DNA of 64,000 bases. It comes from Bugula neritina (Eukaryota > Bryozoa > Gymnolaemata > Cheilostomatida > Bugulidae). The stretch spans positions 5,638,429 to 5,702,428 of the forward strand of contig OZ037769.1 of NCBI GenBank assembly GCA_964035545.1, given 5' to 3'. Below are positions 21,862 through 63,979 of this stretch, one piece after another (the first letter of the stretch is position 1; the number at the start of each line of letters is the position of its first letter). A model generated the notes under the pieces. That model made no database searches and was not told where the DNA came from. It saw nothing but the letters and a program-made list of their open reading frames with translations. The translations under genes and the position numbers were made by a program.

Positions 21862-28701
<6,840 letters not shown>

Positions 28702-32315: not shown

Positions 32316-35300
32316 TTAATATACCTTCTCCTCTTCCTTAGTGATTACATTTATCGTCTGCTCCTTAGAGAACTTCATGACCGAAGCTATGACCTTGGCC
32401 AGCGTCTGTGTGAAACATAACAGCAGTTAGCTTAAGCCAGGTACCACACTCAAAATAACATACAATCAAGTTTAATGCCTATACTTCAGTTCATTTCAGG
32501 ACGTTGGCTTAATATATGTGTTGAAGTATTTCATTCAAGTATAATATAGATATCTCAGATCAAATTATGAAATTTCTATTTTACTTTGTTTAATCAAATG
32601 TTGCTATTTACAACATATTCCATTTTCATTTACTGGTAAGTTCAGAAAGTGAAAACCCGTTTCATATGGTTGAAATAAAATGGACATCATTAACTTTAAT
32701 CTGTCCAGAGTTTAGCAATGTAAGATGAGTACAGTTGTGAGAGACCAGAAGATATGGTAAACCACCAGAGAATCTGTTAAAAACCACCAGAGAATCTGAT
32801 AAACCACCACAGAATCTGGTAAACCACCAGAAAGTCTGGTAAACTACCAGAAGATATGGTATAACACTGACCTGGGTCTGTTTGCCCATCATGTACTCAT
32901 ACAGGACATTTTTAAGATACTCCAGCTCCGTTGGTTCAGCCAGAACTGTTGAGGAATGATTTTCGGAAGTGGAATGAGTGGAGTTGAGGTCCACAGTGTG
33001 CAGGTCATCACTGAAGTGAACAGCTTTCTTAGAGCGTGGAACTGGTGTAGATGCTGTGCTAACATGTGAGTTGTATGGGGGGCTACCCTGGGGGCTCTCA
33101 CTAGCTGACTTGTTGAATGTTATGTTCTCTTGAAGAAGTGCAATCTGCAAAATGTATTAACTACAAACAACAACATAACAGGCAACACAAAAGGCAACAC
33201 CAAAGGCAATATAACAAGCAATATAACTAGCAATGTAACTAGCAATGTAGCTAGCAAAATAATTATCAACATGACTAGCAATGTAACTAGCAATTTAAGT
33301 AGCAATATAACAAGCAATATAACTAGCAATATAACTAATAGTATAATAGACAACTCATTAGGTACTAAAACAGACTATGAGCATACATTCTAAATCTACA
33401 CAACACATGTTGTTTTTATCAACAAAACTATTTAACTTATTAACATCACAGCCTGAAATAGAAGAAAACATAAGAGAACTTTAAAGTAAAAACGGCAATC
33501 ATGATGATTTAACGTAATAAAACTTAATCAGACCTGTGCAAGTAGCTCCGTTTCTCTCTGCTTCAACAGTTCACCTGACGAGTTGAGTTTCTCTTCATAC
33601 TCGGCAATGACATCATGGAGTTGTCTATCTTTTTCAGCGACTATAGATTCCAGATGAGGGTTGTGGCCTTCCAACAAAGACTGTAGTCTTTGAATTTCAG
33701 CTGCAGTTCGTTCTTCTTCAGCCCGGCTTTTTGCTGGATAGAAAAAGTTTCACTAATTACAACATATTTAGTTACATTGCTAATCAACATGTAAGAAAAT
33801 GTTTAAAAGTTGAGAAAAATAGAATATAAACAGCGAACTATACAAACACTGTAGATAGATACTGGCGCAATGACTTACCATAAGCTTCAGAAAACATCTT
33901 CTCAAATTCCTCTTCTTTCTCCTTCATCTTCTGCTCGAACTGAGAATAAAGCTGCTTCATCTCAGACTTGTGTTCTGCAGATAAATGAGTCATCTCTTCC
34001 TCGTGTTTCTACGAAGAAAGGAAAACTAGTAAGGATAGAAGACAACTATATAAGAAAAATAGGAAACATTTTTATTTCACTTTTGTGATCTAACATCAAC
34101 TGGCTTCAACACACATATTTTTTTCTATTTTAAAACTTTGCTTTCAAACAAAATTCCAGGAAAAATTAAAAATAGGGGTCTACTTCCGTGTATTATGAAA
34201 AAAACAGAAATAATAATTAGGTACAGCTTCTAAATTGAGATGCCATCTACGGCCAACTGACCAGGTGGCTTAGAGTAACAAGGCAACTACTCTTTTCGTA
34301 CAATCAGCTTTGATTATTTTCATGAACAATAATTTTCAAGTTTAGAAAAACTAACTAAGTACGAGAATACATGTTTGTAAATATATAAATATCAGATGAA
34401 ATTGAAACTTTGAGTAAAGTTGCATTTATACCTTCACGGTTTTCAGTCAGAAATTCAATTTGGCAGGGTTGAAATTTCTCCGAGATGCATTGCATTGTAA
34501 AAGCCACTCGTAAAAATTTTTGTGCTGTGATAACTTAATCAGCCGAGTTCAGAATAATACTCAAAAGGAGTAATAGCTCCTTGTAAATGTCGCTATTTAA
34601 TTATGACTTTGGCGATTAGATGACGTACTTATATGTTAATAATTATCTCGCCTGTGCCTTCTCAATTATTACTTTTATTGCTGCCAACTTTACTAATTCA
34701 CGGCGTTTTCAAAGGGCATCAGATAGCCATTACACGAGTCAGATTTCAATTTTAGAAATTAAGCTTCTAAATCAATATGATAAACTCACTGAGTTTCAGT
34801 TTGACTATAAAGGGTTACTAGGACGAGTGTTATTAACTGAAACTCGGCACTTATTTTCAGCAGAGGTATAAACGCAACTTTAGAATTTCACCAAACTCTC
34901 AATCACAACTCACGACTTTCAGCAGCAATATGGAAGGCAGGCATTGCTGCCGGTAATAACTCAGTGCTCAGCCGAACCAACCTTGATAAGATCTTCCTGT
35001 TCCACAGAATTCGACTCTTTACCACGCATCGAATTAACCTCAAGCTGCAACTCTTCCGCCAAGTCTTTCTCTTTGACAACATCATGTTCTAATCTTGTAA
35101 TATTTTCTTTAAGACTAGTAATTTCTTTTTGGTGAGAAATTATAATGGCTTCCATTTCCTGTTCGTGAGAATTGCTAGCATCTTCAAGCTGATTTGACAA
35201 CCCTGCCAACTCTGTTCTCAGTGAAGCCAGTTCTGCTGCTTTGCCCTGTGAATTCTCTTCGTTATCTCGATCAAGTTGAGCCATTTGAGTTTCCAATGCC

Positions 35301-38300: not shown

Positions 38301-41300
38301 CTTGCCTTCTGCAACTCTGCCTGCACAGCTTCCAGTTCATTTGTTTTCAGTTGAATTTGACCTTGACACTCTACTTGTTGCTGCTGCAGGTCACTCACTT
38401 GTTGACTAAGTGAGTCAGAGTGCTCCTTAGAAAGTTCTAGAGCTCGCTCCTTCTCTAATCTCAACGACTCTAACCTAAAAGGAGTGTTTACAGACATGTT
38501 TGCAGGTCACATGTAGCCATTTTCAGCTTTTCTATTCGAGTTAAGTTCAGAACAATTTATAAAACATGTGGTAAAAGTCACTTGTACTACAGTCTCACAA
38601 AATGCAGAGTTACAGGAGAACATAACTTGTAATAACCCACAAAGTAGTTTGATTACTTGTACAAGCAACCTTCTTATTGGGAGAACAACTCCAGAAACAT
38701 GATTACTAGCTATAAAAAAGAAATAGATTGTAATACAGTGTGCCCTCAGTATCTCACCAAGTTATGAATCCATCTAGCTAGTTCATTAATGAAAATTTTG
38801 TACAACAGCTAGCATATAATTAAAGCGGTCTTAACACAAACTAAATAGCACGGTGTCATCAAACTGTGTTACTAGTTCACACCTTTCACTAAGATCAGCC
38901 ACTGTTTGTTCATGGCTTCTCTTCTCTTCTGCTATTTCCTTGTCTTTCTGCGATAACCTTTCTCCCCAGTCTTCTAGTAGCTTATCGTGATCAGTAGACT
39001 TTGCTTCAGCCTGTTAACATGTACAAACTAGGATTTAAATATTGTCAAACCTATAACAACTACAACATGGGGTATAGACGCAGCACATGCTCACATGTTG
39101 GCTGAAATAGGTAGGTAAAGATCAGCTAGATAGTTGAAAAATTACCTGCATAACAGCTGATTGATGTTCATTTTCAAGATGATGCAACTTTTTAGTGTGA
39201 GAATCTATTAACTCAGCTATTTGTTTAGAAGATTCTTCCCTAAGGGCAGACAACTCTTGATCATGAGAAGCTTTAAGTTCTGATAACTCCTGCTCCTGAG
39301 TAACGAGAATATTGTCAAACTTTTCTTTAGAATCCTCAGTCGCCTTTTCCAGCTCATCTCTGACTTTGGAAAGCTGAACTTCAAGCAGCTTTTTGGCATT
39401 TTCCTCCTCGTATATTCTGTTTTCAAGTTGATCCTGAACGTCCTTCACCTTTTGCTGATGAGCAATTTCAAGCCTATCCATCTCTTCGCCATGCTTTTTA
39501 TTCAAGCCGTTGGTTATTTCTTCCAGCTGCTCATGGATTTGCCCAGTTGATTCTGATTTTAGCAAGGTGATAGCCTGATCATGCTGATCTCTCAAGTTAT
39601 CCAGCTCGCTAGAATGGCGCTCAATCAATTCCTGCATTTTTCTGCCATTTTCTTCAGTCAGTACGGCTAGTTTCTCCTCATATGTTTTAGTAAGATTCTG
39701 GACTTCTGATTTACTTCTGCTTACGGCATCAGCCAAAGAAACTTCGTGAGCTTCAGTGATTTCAGCTAACTTAACTTCATGCTGCTTGCCTAAATCTGCT
39801 ACTGCATCTGTAACTGCAACTTGAGTATTCTTCTCATGCTGAGACTGAAGCTTGCTTTTCTCCTTCTCAAAATCCGAACTCATTTCTGATTGGATATTTT
39901 CAATTTCCTGTCGATGCTGTAGAGTGAGGTTGGCCATCTCTTCCTGGTGCAGACGAACTAAATTCTGAGACGTTGTGTCTTGAGTCTCACTCCAATCCTC
40001 TTTGACTTTACTAAAATAAAAAGACTTACATTATGTACAGGGAGTAACCGACACTGCTAATTATCAAACTATAAGCATTTAAATAGCTTGTCCATTTTAT
40101 CACAGCAACTCACTTAATAGCCTGCTGGTGGGTATTCTCAAGTTCCAGTTTCATTTTCTCCCAACCTTGTTTTAGTTTTGCTGCCTGTTCCTCCAACTCA
40201 TTCTGGTGGGAAGTAGCGAGTTCCTCCAACCTTCTAGAAGCTTCCAAATGTAACGATTCTTTGGTAGCGACTAAATCAGCGTCTGACTTTTCTTGCATAG
40301 CCTTCATCTTGTCTGCTGCTGCCGCATTGAGATCTGACAACTGTGTCTGGTGCTCTGTTGACAGTTTACTCTCCAAATCTGACAGCTGTGTCTGGTGCTC
40401 TGTTGACAGTTTACTCTCCAAATCTGACAGCTGTGTCTGGTGCTCTGTTGACAGTTTACTCTCCAAATCTGACAGCTGTGTCTGGTGCTCTTTTGACAGC
40501 TTAATCTCTAAATCTGACAGCTGTGTCTGGTGCTCTGTTGACAGCTTACTCTCTAAATCTGACAGCTGTGTCTGGTGCTCTGTTGACAGTTTACTCTCCA
40601 AATCTGACAGCTGCGTCTGGTGCTCTGTTGACAGCTTACTCTCTAAATCTGACAGCTGTGTCTGGTGCTCTTTTGACAGCTTACTTTCTAAACCTGACAG
40701 CTGTGTCTGGTGCTCTGCTGACAGTTTACTCTCTAAATCTGACAGCTGTGTCTGGTGCTCTGCTAACTGTGCTTCCTTCGACTGTTGATGATCCATCTCA
40801 AGCAAATCTATCCTTTGCTGAAACTCTGTTTGAAGTGTTGTTTTTTGTTCCGAAAGTTGGCGCTCATGCTCGGAAATAAGTTCATCTTGCAATCTAGTAA
40901 AAGCCTGTAATTACGCAAAGAAATAAACAGTTCTATGTGCATGCGTACATTGGCCTGCCTTAAGTTTTCAAATTCTTACATGAAACCTGGGTTAACTCTA
41001 GCATAGACTGCTTAAACTGACAGGTTAGTTGAACTAAGAATAGAAACTCATACCTGACTCTGATTCTCCTCGTTCTGCTTGTTGGCTTCTACTGAAACTT
41101 CCCTGACTCGATGCAGCGTCTCCGATTCCTTTTCGGCGAGTTTTCTCTCATGTTCAGCTTGAACCTCGGCCAATTGCTGCAAGTGTAAATAAATAGACAA
41201 CTATTTGTTATATATGAGAACCTACTTTAATACAGTCATCAAATATTTTATATAGTAGATGGAATGTGGACGGTAGAAGTTCTGTGCTTAACTCAAAACA

Positions 41301-55188: not shown

Positions 55189-58100
55189 CTAAAAACATGA
55201 AATTAATAACTTGCTTTGTATTCAGTTAGACTGTGTAGTACTAGAATAGATTTACCTGTGAGTCTGGTTGTGCCAGGTTCCCTCCTGATGTTTCGCATGC
55301 CGTGTTGGCATCATTCCAACTTATTCCTCTCCCCCTGCAGTATGTAGTCCAGTAGTTGTTGTCTTGATGACCAGGTCTCTCCTATCAACAGCAATTTGAC
55401 TTTTGTTTTACCAATTTGTAAACAAACCACGGAGATTTACATTCAAATCTACACATTCCACACATCAAACAGCGTTGAGAACTCATTTCACGTGTTAAAT
55501 TATTTAATTATAAATACCCGGGACTGCTGATACAAAACTTTACATTGTAAAAAGTCTCATCAGGTAAAATTCCAACTATTCTAGTGATCAACCATTGAAT
55601 TATGTTCAAATGCTGTTAATTAAAACAATAAGTTTTCTATACATGTGAGTCACTTTGTTCCACTAACCTCATTCCAGGAAGTACACTTGCCATCGTGATC
55701 TTCGTGATAGCCTTTGGTCTTGTATTCAAAGCAAGATCCATTGAGAAAGATATGAGGATTCACAGTCTGTGCACAATTTCCAACATCTAACATAAATACA
55801 CTCCACTGTACAGCACATTTAGATAATTTATTTTTTAGCAGTTTAATATAATATTTTTCTAGCTGGCTTATGCAAATGATGCAAGAGCTGTTGTGCAAGG
55901 AAGATTATGAGTTTAATGAGGCAGAGGTGCAGTATAAAGAAAAATCGACAATAATATAACGAAAAAAAAAATGGTTTCTTTATATTTTCAACCAGCACAC
56001 CAAACCAAATTTCATAAAAAAACACCTAAAACACTAAGTTATTAAAATTCTTCCCGTAACCTCCTGGTGTCAGTAAATGCCTCTTTTCTATCTCATTTCC
56101 TGGTTTATAATACTTTATAATAATAGTATATTGAGAGTGCATGCTTTTTAGCAAATATTGTGAAACAAAATAAATTTATACAAAGTGTTAAAAAGAAATT
56201 ATAGTAATTTTAATTGCACTAATTGCAATGTTACTGCAACAGTTGTTAACAGCTTAATTGATAGTGTGCAGAAATGCAGTGAATTCTGCTTAGCTTAAGG
56301 TTATAACTCACACTGACAGATATATATACTCTCTGTATTACTCACACTGACAGATATATACTCTCTGTACTACTCACACTGACAGATATATACTCTCTGT
56401 ACTACTCACACTGACAGATATATATACTCTCTGTATTACTCACACTGACAGATATATATACTCTCTGTATTACTCACACTGACAGATATATATACTCTCT
56501 GTATTACTCACACTGACAGATATATATACTCTCTGTATTACTCACACTGACAGATATATATAGATATATATACTCTCTGTACTACTCACACTGGCAGATA
56601 TACTTGTTGACAGACCAGCCATCAGGATCTTCATACACATTAGAGGCGGACGAGATTCTCCATTTATAGCCGTCTGCTTTCCTCAACTGTATGCGATCCG
56701 TTTTCTTGACCGGGTTTGGGGGTTGATGGGCTGCCCAAGAAAACTCTTTGATTTCTGAATTATCTGGAGTTTAATTACATGGTGAAATAATAACATGGTG
56801 TAATAATATAACAGTATTAATAAATAAATGCATTTGAAATCAAAAGTAACATATGCCTATAAAAACAAAGCAAGTCTAGCATAAAGAATATATTGTGTTA
56901 AAACATTTAAGTACATATTTGCTTTCTTTTAATAATCATGCTATTCAAACTCTAGCTGTCATTTATACTTTTCATATAATTCCTAACTTCAAAATGGCAT
57001 GCATTCTTGTCTTTTCTTACATAATTTAATTAAAATTAAATTAATTTAATTACAACACATTGCATAATTGCTATGCATTGAGTTATTAATTTATAGCAAT
57101 ATTTATATTTCAAGCTAGTATATCTCTATTTAAAGGTAGTATATTTATGTTTGTAGTTATTCATCTATAACTATTGCTAATATAATATCTATACTTGTAG
57201 CTATTATAGCTATATTTCACCTGCCCAAAGCCAAGCATATTCATATTCACTGTGACCCCCAATCCATGCCCTGTCCATGTAATTATTTACCAGCAAATTC
57301 TTAGCGTTTCTTACCACAGAGTCATCTATAAAACATATTTGTATGCAGGTACAAGGCACAAGGAAATTTTTATTTCACTACTGCAGTCATCTATTTTGAT
57401 GAGGATTCAATATGATGCAAAATATAGAGAACATAGCATAACAGTATAATAAAGAAAGGGTGATGTTTTACTATTTGTGAACATTGAAAATAAATTTGTT
57501 AACTTTTTCCCTCTTTTAAAGTGTTATTTGTGCAAAAAGGATATACAATAATAACATATTACAGTAATACGCAGCTACGGTTACCGGTGTAAAACTATAG
57601 CTTGTCTGGATGAGAAAGTAATACTCAACTAACCTACTAGTGTGACCAGAGTAGAGTTGTCTCCACATTGTTTGGTAGCGTCTTCCCATGACGCAACAGT
57701 TTGTCTCAATGTTAGACATTTATCATTGTTAAGAATTTCGCCAGAGCATATCTCTAGTCTCGCTATTTTAGGAAATAAAATGTTTATCCTCTGTTATATA
57801 AGAGTGCACATGGAAATATGATAAATGGTATCTTCAACTGCACACTCAAAATGGTTATATACAAACTTTCAGGGCCAAAATGTTTTAAATAATTAGAAAT
57901 TCTCAGTGACTGAGATAATAAAAATTTAGCAACTTGATCATATGATGATCTCAATATTTTACTGTACAATTATTAAACTATTTTTACTTTGTTCTCAAGG
58001 CATAAACATAGGAAGTGGTTCAAGTCAAAACAACAGCATTGATAATGTTAGGAAATCATTCAGTCATAAATGTTCCTGTGCTACATTAGAAACAGAATTA

Positions 58101-59443
58101 TTCTATAAGCAGCTCCAAGTTGGGGGTGACTGAGTGCAGTGGCTTGAGGTTCTTAAGCTTAGAGTTGGAAATATAGGTTGCAACTTTTACCTCCAACTCC
58201 GAACTTGAGACCTCAAACTATATTTCACTCAGTCACCCCCTGACTCTGGACTGCCTTTAGATGATTTCTTAGAAACAAGTTCTTGGTCCAAACCCTTATC
58301 ACCGAGGGGTAGTGACTGTAAACCTGAAAAATAATTGCCCCCACTGGGAATCGAACCCAAGACCTCTGGCTTGCAAGCAAGTGTGCTAATCATTACACCA
58401 CGGGGACCACTGGGTAAACTCAACACTGTAAACCCACATGAGTTTATGCTCTCAACATTTGTAAGAACATGGGAGAATGAGACTCACATTTACAAAGAGG
58501 AGGGGTTCCGCTCCAAGTTCTGCTTCCACAAGTTCTGACAGGGTCTCCTCCGTCCAACACATAGCCACTCTTACACATGTATGTCACTGTAGAGTTCTTA
58601 GAGTACACCAGACTGTCTGGTGTTATCTTGGAAAATGCTGGAATTTCTGGTCGGTAGCATAGCCTAGCAGATTCTGTAACATTTAGCCCAGATTTATTAA
58701 TATTGATATAGTGTACTAGCTGTATAGGTATAGTGTACTAGCTGTATAGGTATAATGTACTAGCTGTATAGGTATAGTGTACTAGCTGTGTAGGTATAGT
58801 GTAATAGCTGTGTAGGTATAGTGTAATAGCTGTATATATAAGTATAGTGTATATTAGAAGTATAGGTATAACATGTAGCTGTATACTGGAATACTAGTAT
58901 AGCTGGTGCAGCTTTATATTGTAATGCAATAGGTTCCATTCTACACTTTATATATAGCATAATTATTGTTGAAATCTGTTGAAACTAAACATACAAATTC
59001 ACATTATTGGTTTGATTTGTGTTCTTGTTGCATGGTAAACTATGTAGCTAAAATATAGCGACCATGCCCCTGTTAATATATTACACCAGAAGTGAAATCA
59101 ATGAAGTGGGAATCAATGAGTAGGTTTTATGAACAATTACAGAAACGATTTTAAGTTGATGTTGAAATGAAAAGTGAAGCATGAAATATTACTACTCTGT
59201 TTTCATGTTAATATATGATGAGTTTGGGTAAGTAATTTAACAGTAGCAAGTATTTGACTCTCTGTTTCTGAAGCAAAGAAAATTCACTATTTTCAGAATG
59301 AAATCAACAGATGGAACGAACACAAATAGCCAGTGTTACAAATTATAATATGTTTCACAGAAGATATACTTACCGACAGAATGTTTAACACAAATAACTA
59401 GGAAAAAGACCAAAACGCTGATGGTAACTGATTGAGACGCCAT
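52555..59443 (-). CDS. Secreted CCP-CTLD-CTLD-CCP-mucin protein (12 exons, 601 aa)
   Basis: Coding exons: 59443-59374, 58673-58488, 57762-57634, 57325-57221, 56763-56590, 55786-55668, 55381-55256, 55118-54989, 54669-54535, 54044-53841, 53447-53391, 52925-52555; phases agree throughout. Residues 1-23 are a signal peptide (VTISVLVFFLVICV core); the ATG is in good context and is preferred to an in-frame upstream ATG at 59569. CCP/sushi 1 is at about 24-85 (CYRPEIPAFS ... YMCKSGYVLDGGD ... TWSGTPPLCK). CTLD 1 is at 86-221 (SWEDATKQC, AWIGG, KYICQ). CTLD 2 is at 222-391 (SWNDANTACETSGGNLAQ, YWIGGSYGY, LPSFLCE). CCP 2 is at 392-459. The remaining ~140 residues are Ser/Thr-rich and mucin-like, with no membrane anchor. 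It is likely a secreted recognition or matrix protein; ligand unknown. Intron 11 has a probable GC donor. Confidence 0.9.
55145..55186. repeat. (TA)n microsatellite in the CCP/CTLD gene
   Basis: About 42 bases of TA repeat, starting some 26 bases upstream of the exon 8 acceptor (exon edge 55118). Confidence 0.95.
56308..56589 (-). repeat. Minisatellite re-copying the CTLD exon 5 splice donor (8 units)
   Basis: On the minus strand each 32-34-base unit reads ATATATCTGTCAGTGTGAGT followed by AnTACAGAGAGTAT. This is a copy of the last bases of exon 5 plus its donor (ATATCTGCCAGT|GTGAGTA). Eight tandem copies follow the real donor, so nine GTGAGT donors stand in a row. One unit has an extra internal ATAGATATAT. 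Confidence 0.95.
58122..58243. repeat. Long imperfect inverted repeat (hairpin) in a CTLD-gene intron
   Basis: GGGGGTGACTGAGTG at the left pairs with CACTCAGTCACCCCC at the right. Inner arms GGCTTGAGGTTCTTAAGC and GAACTTGAGACCTCAAAC also pair imperfectly, with the loop around 58180. The right arm resembles the SINE fragment at 18955-19075, so the hairpin may be two SINE heads inserted head to head. Confidence 0.8.
58244..58445 (-). repeat. SINE copy D, composite, with tRNA-like head at 58337-58407
   Basis: On the minus strand, 58407-58337 folds approximately as a tRNA: a seven-pair acceptor stem (GTCCCCG against TGGGGGC, two G-U), a D arm, a T arm with TTCGATT, and a seven-base anticodon loop TTGCAAG (GCA, Cys-like). 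Only about three of five anticodon-stem pairs form, so it looks like a SINE head or pseudogene, not a working tRNA. On the plus strand, GGGTAGTGACTGTAAACC (58307-58324) and CTGTAAACCCACATGAG near 58425 are tail sequences like those of copies A and C, so at least two insertions are nested here. Confidence 0.6.
58712..58860. repeat. 22-bp minisatellite upstream of the CCP 1 exon
   Basis: About six units of AGTGTACTAGCTGTATAGGT with small changes (TAATAGCTGTGTAGG), in intron 1 of the CCP/CTLD gene, starting about 40 bases from the exon 2 acceptor (exon edge 58673). Confidence 0.9.
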
Positions 59444-61478: not shown

Positions 61479-63979
61479 ATGTTGAAGGAAGTTGCAGTCG
61501 CTCTCTGCTTTATAGCGCTGACACAGGCAGCAGCATCGTGAGTTTTTATTATTGAAATATCTTTAAAACATTTTCCAGAAAAAACCTGTTAATAATATTG
61601 AGAAAGCTGCTTTCAAATCATGTTATGCAACTTAATACTGTTTTACGCTAAGAACCAGTAAACTGTGTTAAGCTGACACAAATAATTGTTAATTCAAATT
61701 TCATGATTCATTTTATAGGTGACCAGAGAAATTTACCAGCGCAATTTGTTTTAAAGTGTAGAAGTTTAAATTCATGTCTAAAAATCATTATTTTTCATAT
61801 TAACATAATTATTCCTGCTATATCCAATCAACTTCTTATAAACGTTTTACATTTTGTCGTAAAGGTGCCCCAAGAATGCCTGTGACAAAATAACATGTGG
61901 CGACAAGCTGACAAAAGACAGCTGTCTTCTGAATGGAGGAAGATACATTCCAAACGGTGGGCCCTGTGGGTGCTGTGACCACTGCGTACAGCTTCTAGGT
62001 ATGTACAGTTTCTTTTCTTGTAACCAGAAGTCAACACTCTGACAGTTGATTCTTGGCATAGACTCTTAAGGCCTCTGACAAGCTTTCCTACTGTGATACT
62101 AGACATGGTTAGGCTAGTTTCAAGATGCTTAAGATTTTCAACAAAAATGTATTGCTAAAGTTACATCAAGTAATAGCTAGCACACATATAATTGTGGACA
62201 TCAACCTTTGTGATACTTTAATATAGTTGTGTTATCTAATTGTGTACGTCAACCTTTATCCCCAACTATCTCCTCTGATCTAGCTGGAAGGACATCAACC
62301 TTTATGATGCTTTAATATCCTATAGGAGAAGGAGAGGCATGCACCAGTAGTGGATCTGGACTCGCTACATCTGAATGTGGAGATGATCTATATTGCTCTG
62401 ACACCACAAACCAGTGCACTAAACGTAAGTATGATTTATGATTCGTTAAATTTTATTTTAGATTCTATATTCACTCATATTATATTATTATACACGGAAA
62501 TTGAGCAATGTCTATTCAGTATATCTTTCAAAATAGGTGTGATGATTATTTGAATTACAGCTAAAATGTGTACTATTTGTTAAAATTACATTTTTCAAAG
62601 TAGATAAGATGATTTTTAAAATACTGTTGTGTAGTTTTATGTTCTACATTCAATTGTTTTCATTAGTTTGACTTATATAATGGAATTTGTTGAAAAAATA
62701 ATTAAAATCTTTTAGACAAGACTAGTTTTAAATGATCATGATTAACAAAAATTAGATTTCGGTTTTCTACAACTATAAATTACAGAGCTGCTATAATTTA
62801 TAATGCACAATATTCTATGCTTTATCTTTTAGCAAACTGTGCCATGATCAAGAAAGAGAAAGAAGAGTTTCTGGCCACTGTGCCTAAGCCACCAGGGTTT
62901 ATTGTCCCAACATGTGATGCTGATGGAACCTATACAGGCAAACAATGCTCGGAAAATGAGTAAGAATATTGCAACATGCCTATATAAGCTCATTATTATA
63001 TGCTTATAACTATATGCTTATAAATATATGCTTATAGCTATATGCTTATAAATATATGCTTATAGCTATATGCTTATAAATATATGCTTATAACAATATG
63101 CTTATAACTATATGCTTATGTTTATAAGTTTATACTTATTTGCTTACAACTATCTGCTTAAAAGCATGTGCTTATGATTATATATGTTTATAACTATATG
63201 CCTAAAGCTATAATATGCTTACAGCTGTATTTAAAATTATATATGCTTACAACTATAATTATGCTTATATGACTCTGTACTTACAAAGTGAGTCAATATA
63301 GATTGGTAACTTATAATTGTAGCCTACATTTAAAAGCTATTTTCTTACTGAGGGTAGACAAATTGTGATCCAAGTGGATTGATGTTTCAAGCACTTTACC
63401 TATGAGTAGTTAAAGAAAATGATGTCACAGAAGGCTAAAGTACTTGTAAATGAGTATTAACTGTTATAGAGCAAGCCTATTCACAATATGACAAGCGAGT
63501 GCAGGTTCATAATATGACATGCAAGTGCAGGTTCATGATATGACATGCGAGTGCAGGTTATCCACAAGTCGTTTTTATTTGCATGAATATTTTTGGTATT
63601 ACTAAACTAGAATTTCAAATTTCAAAATTCTTTCGTTTATATAATATCTATACTAGATGCATGCAACTGTAATGGAGATCTATTTTACACAATTCTGCAA
63701 AATATTAGATAATTCAAATATTGAGGACTTTCAACAGAGTAGCAGTGACAATATTCGTAGGAGAAACATATGTAGATCATCACTCAGATCATGCCACCAG
63801 CTTAAGTATAAAAATAAAAGCAGAAAAAACAAGCAGTACTAAATTCAACTTAATGTACAATTTGCAGATGCTACTGTGTAGATGTCCATGGAAAACTTAT
63901 CGACGGTTATTCTCATGACATTTCGCAGACGGATAACAGAATCACTTGCCGTAAGAGTCACCTGCACATATCAATATGA
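61479..63979 (+). CDS. Secreted protein: 12-Cys IGFBP/FPI-like domain plus thyroglobulin type-1 domain
   Basis: Exons 61479-61537, 61865-61998, 62326-62424, 62833-62959 and 63868-63979 (stop at 63977) give 176 aa with all phases in agreement. Residues 1-19 are a signal peptide (VAVALCFIALTQAAA). Residues 21-95 contain exactly 12 cysteines with a GGPCGCCDHC core and CGDDLYC, as in IGFBP N-terminal domains and arthropod fungal-protease-inhibitor-like domains. Residues 98-167 are a thyroglobulin type-1 repeat with six cysteines (100, 125, 136, 141, 143, 167), DGTYTGKQC and CYCVD (usual CWCVD). Tg-1 domains often inhibit cysteine or aspartic proteases. After ITC a good donor (C|GTAAGA at 63951) offers splicing to exons beyond the window, so the C terminus and total length are uncertain. 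A four-codon upstream frame overlaps the start. Confidence 0.85.
62985..63265. repeat. ATATGCTTATAACT minisatellite in the Tg-1 gene intron
   Basis: Units of TATATGCTTATAACTATATG and TATGCTTATAAATA run irregularly for about 270 bases. The array starts about 25 bases after the exon 4 donor (exon edge 62959). Confidence 0.9.
63481..63560. repeat. Triplicated 31-base unit in the Tg-1 gene intron
   Basis: ATATGACAAGCGAGTGCAGG, ATATGACATGCAAGTGCAGG and ATATGACATGCGAGTGCAGG, each followed by TTCAT or TTATC. A short tandem repeat with no coding role. Confidence 0.8.

What the first reader, a model, noticed from the sequence alone, without database searches (positions are those of the whole stretch)
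56308..56763. Minisatellite that re-copies a 5' splice site eight times
The real exon 5 donor of the CCP/CTLD gene (ATATCTGCCAGT|GTGAGTA) is followed by eight tandem 32-34-base units, each carrying ATATCTGTCAGT GTGAGTA. Nine near-identical donors therefore stand in series, and the repeat was born from the exon-intron junction itself. Reading past the true donor gives Cys-Glu-stop (TGT GAG TAG), so using any decoy or retaining the intron would end the protein as ICQCE, a secreted CCP-CTLD1 isoform with a canonical lectin C terminus. The array could sequester U1 snRNP or set isoform ratio by copy number.
Basis: partly seen in the sequence, partly recalled or inferred. Interest (0 to 1): 0.8.

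Follow-up and report, generated by a model that had tools for sequence, protein, structure and literature searches.

The report
Minisatellite copied from a splice donor
In what looks like a bryozoan (moss animal) genome, the short stretch where a lectin-like gene's exon meets its intron has been copied eight more times in a row, giving nine matching splice-start signals; repeats of this kind are known from lancelets and one human gene and are probably mostly harmless, but they offer a natural test of how cells choose among equal splice sites.

Summary
On the minus strand, the phase-1 donor of exon 5 (56763-56590) of a CCP/C-type-lectin-like gene is followed by eight near-identical junction copies. 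Positions -3 to +6 (AGT|GTGAGT) are the same in all nine donors. Seven copies are exact 19-mers; the eighth ends GTGAGTT. Spacings are 44, 34x4, 32x2, 34. Shuffles give 0.05 such matches; the window has 9. Units include 12-13 exonic bases, so the array was born from the junction. The one other relative of this exon found has the same donor once and no array.

It is a 'mirage' in the amphioxus sense and resembles the human IFI6 donor minisatellite. Published amphioxus mirages reportedly do not disturb splicing. The proposed secreted isoform is weak: the stop is the generic outcome of a phase-1 T|GTGAGTAR donor, seven of eight decoys would be NMD-prone by the usual rule, and the full-length protein looks secreted too.

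New here: at eight loci picked for tandem GTGAGTA, arrays lie close to coding-like sequence more than chance, and one C2H2 zinc-finger exon is bracketed by arrays copying its acceptor and its donor.

The parts
56590..56763 (-). Exon 5 (174 bp), end of first C-type-lectin-like domain, ...DGWSVNKYICQ; phase-1 donor after T
   Evidence: 173 of its 174 bases align end to end, without length change, to the paralogous exon at G000:C5:9539801-9539973
56581..56592 (-). Authentic 5' splice site AGT|GTGAGTAGT (intron +1 = 56589)
   Evidence: the Bugula neritina gene model P0001 joins KYICQ to Y at the homologous site
56582..56584 (-). In-frame TAG at intron +6 to +8 reached by reading past the donor (ICQ-CE-stop)
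56302..56602 (-). Minisatellite made of copies of the exon-intron junction: 8 extra donors, spacings 44, 34x4, 32x2, 34
56305..56557 (-). Eight decoy junctions ATATCTGTCAGT|GTGAGT[A/T], first intron-like bases at 56545, 56511, 56477, 56443, 56409, 56377, 56345, 56311
56598..56604 (-). Exonic AGTATAT (-15 to -9), possible microhomology seed
   Evidence: Sequence; inference
56568..56574 (-). Intronic AGTATAT (+16 to +22), 30 bp from the exonic one; units = 30 bp + one or two TA
   Evidence: Sequence; inference
55787..56589 (-). Intron 5 (803 bp) that contains the array
   Evidence: (acceptor TTAG|AT before exon 6), by eye
55668..55786 (-). Exon 6, start of the second C-type-lectin-like domain
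   Evidence: Pfam Lectin_C best stretch at residues 258-321 of the conceptual protein
58488..58673 (-). Exon 2, CCP/Sushi domain of the same gene
59374..59443 (-). Exon 1, MASQSVTISVLVFFLVICVKHSV, signal-peptide-like
   Evidence: similar to the N terminus of P0001

Best explanation
The array is a 'mirage': a young intronic minisatellite made by tandem duplication of a stretch that spans a 5' splice site. Shown: the unit carries the last 12-13 exon bases and the first intron bases, and the array abuts the authentic donor. Inferred: the first duplication arose by slippage or unequal exchange between two AGTATAT stretches 30 bp apart (exon -15 and intron +16), and TA gain made 32- and 34-bp units; the array then grew and homogenised. 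Inferred: the spliceosome mostly joins exon 5 at the authentic donor, as reported for amphioxus mirages; occasional use of a decoy adds the same stop codon and yields an mRNA that is mostly degraded, so the array is close to neutral, at most a mild drag on expression. It may belong to a wider habit of this bryozoan genome: minisatellites that nearly fill introns and lie close to splice sites.
For: Junction copies with exonic bases. Exact 19-mer found only in the array and once at a paralogue, which has no TRF array there. All copies and the paralogue have TGT where the exon has TGC, as expected if the exon changed after copying. No unusual RNA fold (z 0.27). The Bugula gene model splices at the homologous donor. 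Same genome: tandem GTGAGTA triples 6279 vs 373 for the reversed pattern (overlapping matches); in eight loci on C1 chosen for such arrays (21 arrays of any kind), array edges lie within 20 bp of coding-like sequence 11 times vs 3.25 by random placement, 0 of 1000; a zinc-finger exon (Pfam zf-C2H2 28.6 bits, cut-off 25.2) has 15 copies of its acceptor junction and 3 of its donor start, authentic ones included. Amphioxus mirages reported not to disturb splicing: PMC3087553 and PMC3902484, passages.
Against: No transcript data, so donor choice is inferred. All nine donors have the same -3..+6 9-mer, so strength does not protect the authentic one; a passage in PMC6002489 says the intron-proximal site is favoured between comparable donors, which would favour decoys. 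The array's right edge lies inside a donor copy (GTGAGT then TATAACC), which the simple AGTATAT model does not explain. In arrays not chosen by motif, and with this array left out, closeness to coding-like sequence is not convincing (35 arrays; 41-348 of 1000 placements reach the observed count over three thresholds and two distances), and GTGAGT is not a favoured word (2 of 41 arrays, one of them this array; rank 104). GTGAGTA lay on the gene's sense strand in 4 and antisense in 4 of 8 C1 arrays by my reading; only four strands are firm (3 sense, 1 antisense). The motif count alone therefore does not prove descent from donors, and its planned controls did not complete.
Confidence: 0.72

Rival explanations
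1. Decoy donors are used at an appreciable rate and work as unproductive splicing: each adds a stop codon and most products are degraded, so array length tunes mRNA level.
For: All nine sites share the -3..+6 9-mer, with equal predicted U1 pairing for eight of them; stop-to-junction distances 70-270 nt for decoys 2-8; intron-proximal preference between comparable donors cited in PMC6002489 (passage); in human IFI6 downstream repeat units are used as donors (PMC4526556 passage).
Against: Amphioxus mirages reported without aberrant mRNAs (passages); the Bugula gene model uses the authentic junction, though a model is not a read count; the NMD rule is untested in bryozoans.
Confidence: 0.18
2. 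One reading: the array sets the ratio of a secreted CCP-CTLD1 isoform (ICQCE end) to full length, through decoy use, intron retention or U1 sequestration.
For: Reading on gives ICQ-CE-stop after a complete-looking CTLD end; decoy 1 leaves the stop only 36 nt from the junction, so it could escape NMD.
Against: The stop is generic to T|GTGAGTAR phase-1 donors and is present in the array-less paralogue; the full-length protein also looks secreted; seven of eight decoys are NMD-prone by the usual rule.
Confidence: 0.06
3. The array is an ordinary intronic minisatellite that grew up to the exon; its likeness to the junction comes from the exon end having been captured from the repeat.
For: Other arrays here lie at intron ends without evident exonic bases.
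Against: The exonic bases encode the KYICQ end that the paralogue shares without any array, so the exon end came first.
Confidence: 0.03
4. Assembly artefact (false tandem expansion).
For: Not excluded: no reads available.
Against: Units differ (44/34/32 bp, A or G at +8, GTGAGTT in the last), unlike a simple mis-joined duplicate; comparable arrays occur elsewhere.
Confidence: 0.04

Closest known systems
Amphioxus 'mirages' (Adh3, troponin C, globins BflGb6/BflGb9, PGBD5)
   Same: Minisatellite-like tandem duplications of an exon-intron boundary next to the authentic one, at 5' and 3' boundaries, many copies carrying splice signals (PMC3087553 and PMC3902484 passages).
   Different: Different phylum; amphioxus arrays are length-unstable and splicing was checked by RT-PCR for globins, neither testable here; unit here 32-44 bp versus 10-72 (Adh3) and 150-160 bp (globins).
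Human IFI6 (6-16, G1P3) splice-donor minisatellite
   Same: [quoted passage not shown] 1995, seen in reference lists).
   Different: There two downstream repeat units serve as donors, giving three mRNA species (PMC4526556 passage). Use here is unknown. Repeat size and frame details of IFI6 are recalled only and were not compared.
Intronic minisatellites in C. elegans (CeRep25B, linked to alternative splicing) and in earthworm metallothionein intron 1
   Same: Invertebrate intronic minisatellites (PMC4039745 and PMC12783039, passages).
   Different: The passages seen do not describe copies of a splice junction.

Membership tests
Mirage (tandemly duplicated exon-intron boundary) | Tandem repeat with minisatellite-size unit | tested here: met
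   units 32-44 bp
Mirage (tandemly duplicated exon-intron boundary) | Unit contains both exonic and intronic bases of the adjoining junction | tested here: met
   12 of 13 exonic bases plus GTGAGTA...
Mirage (tandemly duplicated exon-intron boundary) | Array adjoins the authentic boundary of a real coding exon | tested here: met
   exon conserved in a paralogue and in a Bugula protein
Mirage (tandemly duplicated exon-intron boundary) | Regular splicing is not disturbed | not testable with these tools
   No transcripts held; only a gene model
Mirage (tandemly duplicated exon-intron boundary) | Length instability between haplotypes or cells | not testable with these tools
   One assembly; one search found the locus once, plus the paralogue
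IFI6-type donor minisatellite | Downstream repeats used as alternative donors in mRNA | not testable with these tools
   No RNA data
Dispersed or mobile repeat | Unit occurs at many unrelated places | tested here: not met
   exact matches only: the 19-mer at 7 array sites and one paralogue

The most novel reading that the evidence does not exclude
This bryozoan lineage has a continuing, genome-wide process that turns splice junctions into minisatellites, at both 5' and 3' splice sites, so that many introns are built of tandem copies of their own ends; its spliceosome must then choose the outermost of many equal sites, and the arrays provide ready-made sites for intron sliding and intron gain.
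Probability: 0.3. Interest if true: 0.65.

Novelty: new member of a known kind. Interest (0 to 1): 0.45.

Why it matters
Nine donors with identical -3..+6 sequence in series, in a natural gene, is a clean natural test of how a spliceosome chooses among equal 5' splice sites. If many introns of this genome are built this way, bryozoans become another animal group, beside amphioxus, in which intron growth and gain from duplicated splice sites can be studied directly.

Tried and rejected
Rejected: dispersed repeat; RNA hairpin function (fold z 0.27, 58 of 100 shuffles at least as stable; the nine donors about equally accessible, mean unpaired 0.50-0.56). Assembly duplicate: disfavoured because units differ, not excluded.

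Led nowhere: controls for the genome-wide motif count. AGGTGAGT x3, AGGTAAGT x3 (sent once) and GTAGTGA x3 did not complete, so the only control for 6279 is the reversed motif, 373. Of 30 Sushi loci fetched, one (L062) has an array starting within 10 bp after a predicted Sushi donor (simple PWM with typed frequencies); 8 of 30 had no donor over the threshold, and some loci overlap. A first permutation run used overlapping loci and undercounted arrays with two coding edges; one search replaces it and uses 17 of the 30 Sushi loci, L041 and the window, and separately the eight motif-chosen loci. The coding score is crude (2084 training codons) and prefers a wrong frame in places; random placement could overlap other arrays.

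Not obtainable: DNA of the Bugula neritina orthologue, reads, transcripts, other individuals. Cañestro 2002 and Turri 1995 are not held.

Full report
WHAT IS THERE. The gene lies on the minus strand. Conceptual exons 1-8 read signal-peptide-like leader, one CCP/Sushi domain, and two C-type-lectin-like domains; further open stretches with another CCP-like segment and a Ser/Thr-rich end follow. Pfam gives Sushi (35.8 bits) and Lectin_C (30.1 bits) for the joined exons; each lectin-like domain alone is just below the Lectin_C cut-off (20.7 and 20.3 vs 22.6). The single protein with E <= 0.001 (446 candidates scored) is a hypothetical protein of the bryozoan Bugula neritina (EB796_007307, 80% identity over 24% of the query). 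The genome (216 Mb in 295 contigs) is therefore most likely that of a bryozoan near Bugula. Exon 5 is 56763-56590, 174 bp, phase 1 at both ends by eye.

THE ARRAY. After the authentic donor AGT|GTGAGTAG come eight more junction copies, with first intron-like bases at 56545, 56511, 56477, 56443, 56409, 56377, 56345 and 56311. Nine matches to the junction pattern at up to 3 mismatches all lie here; 0.05 are expected. Each copy has 12 of the last 13 exon bases ungapped; allowing for an extra TA the likeness extends to AGTATAT at exon -15 (by eye). In the whole genome the exact 19-mer ATATCTGTCAGTGTGAGTA occurs seven times in the array and once elsewhere: at the donor of a paralogous exon, 73% identical over the 173 bases searched, in a locus with relatives of exons 2-5 in order. 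That donor stands alone, TRF finds no array within 1.6 kb after it, and reading past it also gives Cys-Glu-stop. DNA and protein searches with the exon found no third copy (each scored 2 candidates).

ORIGIN. Because the shared exonic bases encode a KYICQ end that the paralogue has without an array, the junction came first. All copies and the paralogue have TGT where the exon has TGC, so the exon probably changed after it was copied. AGTATAT occurs at exon -15 to -9 and intron +16 to +22, 30 bp apart, and the units are 30 bp plus one or two TA; this fits slippage or unequal exchange between those stretches (inference). The first spacing, 44, has ten extra bases. The right edge of the array, inside a donor copy, is not explained by this alone.

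DOES IT ACT? The nine donors have the same -3..+6 sequence. Predicted pairing to a U1 5' end is equal for eight (-8.1) and weaker for the last (-6.5), within the range of seven other donors of the gene (-5.5 to -11.9). The transcript of the array does not fold better than shuffles. Any decoy, or retention, ends the protein at ICQCE. The stop would lie 36 nt before the junction for decoy 1 and 70-270 nt for decoys 2-8. Under the usual exon-junction rule (recalled) most such mRNAs would be degraded. The stop itself is generic: T|GTGAGTAR in phase 1 always reads Cys-Glu-stop. The Bugula gene model joins KYICQ to Y, which fits the authentic donor followed by an AT-starting exon; it is a model, not a count of reads, and it lacks several exons of the window gene. 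In amphioxus, published mirages duplicate splice sites yet were reported not to interfere with splicing (PMC3087553 and PMC3902484, passages), while in human IFI6 downstream repeat units do serve as donors (PMC4526556 passage). Between comparable donors the intron-proximal one is said to be favoured (PMC6002489 passage), which is the main reason to keep decoy use open.

A WIDER HABIT? A genome-wide search for three GTGAGTA within 5-35-base gaps gave 6279 overlapping matches against 373 for the reversed motif. I looked at the first eight clusters listed, all on contig C1. In four (L014, L017, L018, L074) coding-like sequence lies within 60 bp of both array ends, so the array nearly fills an intron; L018 lies between two halves of an SH3 domain (SH3_1 35.1 bits for the joined halves) and is flush with the acceptor. 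In L072 a C2H2 zinc-finger exon (zf-C2H2 28.6 bits) is bracketed: 15 copies of AATGTA[AG]GTGTG at 28-bp spacing end with its own acceptor AATGTAG|GTGTG, and GTGAGTAAGCA stands three times at 21-bp spacing, starting with its own donor. L040, L073 and L075 have coding-like sequence within 50 bp on one side (scores for L014 and L040 are weak). For these eight loci (21 arrays of any kind) array edges lie within 20 bp of coding-like sequence 11 times against 3.25 by random placement, 0 of 1000 (threshold 6; 0-1 of 1000 over the three thresholds for 20 bp, 0-2 for 40 bp). In a sample not chosen by motif (window, L041, 17 Sushi loci; 127,778 bases, 36 arrays) the figures are 5 against 1.62, 21 of 1000; leaving out the finding's own array, 4 against 1.67, 82 of 1000, and 348 of 1000 at the strictest setting, so the general trend is only suggestive. 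GTGAGT is not a favoured word in motif-unselected arrays (2 of 41, one of them the finding's). In the eight C1 clusters the motif was sense to the gene in four and antisense in four by my reading; four strands are firm (L017, L072, L074 sense, L018 antisense) and four are not. Motif frequency therefore does not by itself show descent from donors. In this window other arrays also sit at intron ends: one from intron +3 after an exon matching sulfide:quinone oxidoreductase (23966-24249) and one from about +11 after an exon with a sub-threshold GRIP match (32744-32861; 21.9 vs 24.4 bits). Neither shows evident exonic bases in its unit.

VERDICT. A real junction-born donor array, a new member of the mirage kind, probably near-neutral. 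I found no report in bryozoans: one search for bryozoan, genome, tandem repeats, minisatellite gave 0 papers, and one search listed four bryozoan papers, none on this by title. The isoform story is unlikely. The possible genome-wide habit is the part worth pursuing.

Noticed in passing
G000 small contigs, e.g. C188:3952-4716, C64:2494-3273, C166:13490-14260: Many protein-kinase matches on small contigs read through several in-frame TAA and TAG but almost no TGA, while those on large contigs mostly have none: the assembly probably includes a ciliate-like (TAA/TAG = Gln) cobiont or contaminant.
   Followed up: no
L072:153-556 and 760-819 (G000:C1:586700-588300): A C2H2 zinc-finger exon bracketed by arrays copying its acceptor junction (15 copies with the authentic one) and its donor start (3 with the authentic one).
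   Followed up: partly
23966-24249: 20-bp minisatellite starting at intron +3 after an exon matching sulfide:quinone oxidoreductase (minus strand).
   Followed up: partly
32744-32861 and 33163-33337: Two minisatellites hugging a golgin-like exon (GRIP match below cut-off) on the minus strand: one from about +11 after its donor, one about 18 bp before its acceptor.
   Followed up: partly
58701-58870: Another minisatellite in intron 1 of the same gene, about 27 bp before the CCP exon.
   Followed up: no
62997-63261: 14-bp minisatellite about 37 bp after a possible donor of an exon matching Pfam Thyroglobulin_1 (26.3 bits, cut-off 20.6) on the plus strand.
   Followed up: partly
40332-40762: 45-bp repeat, 9.6 copies; the period is a multiple of three and it may be a coding repeat, not checked.
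   Followed up: no
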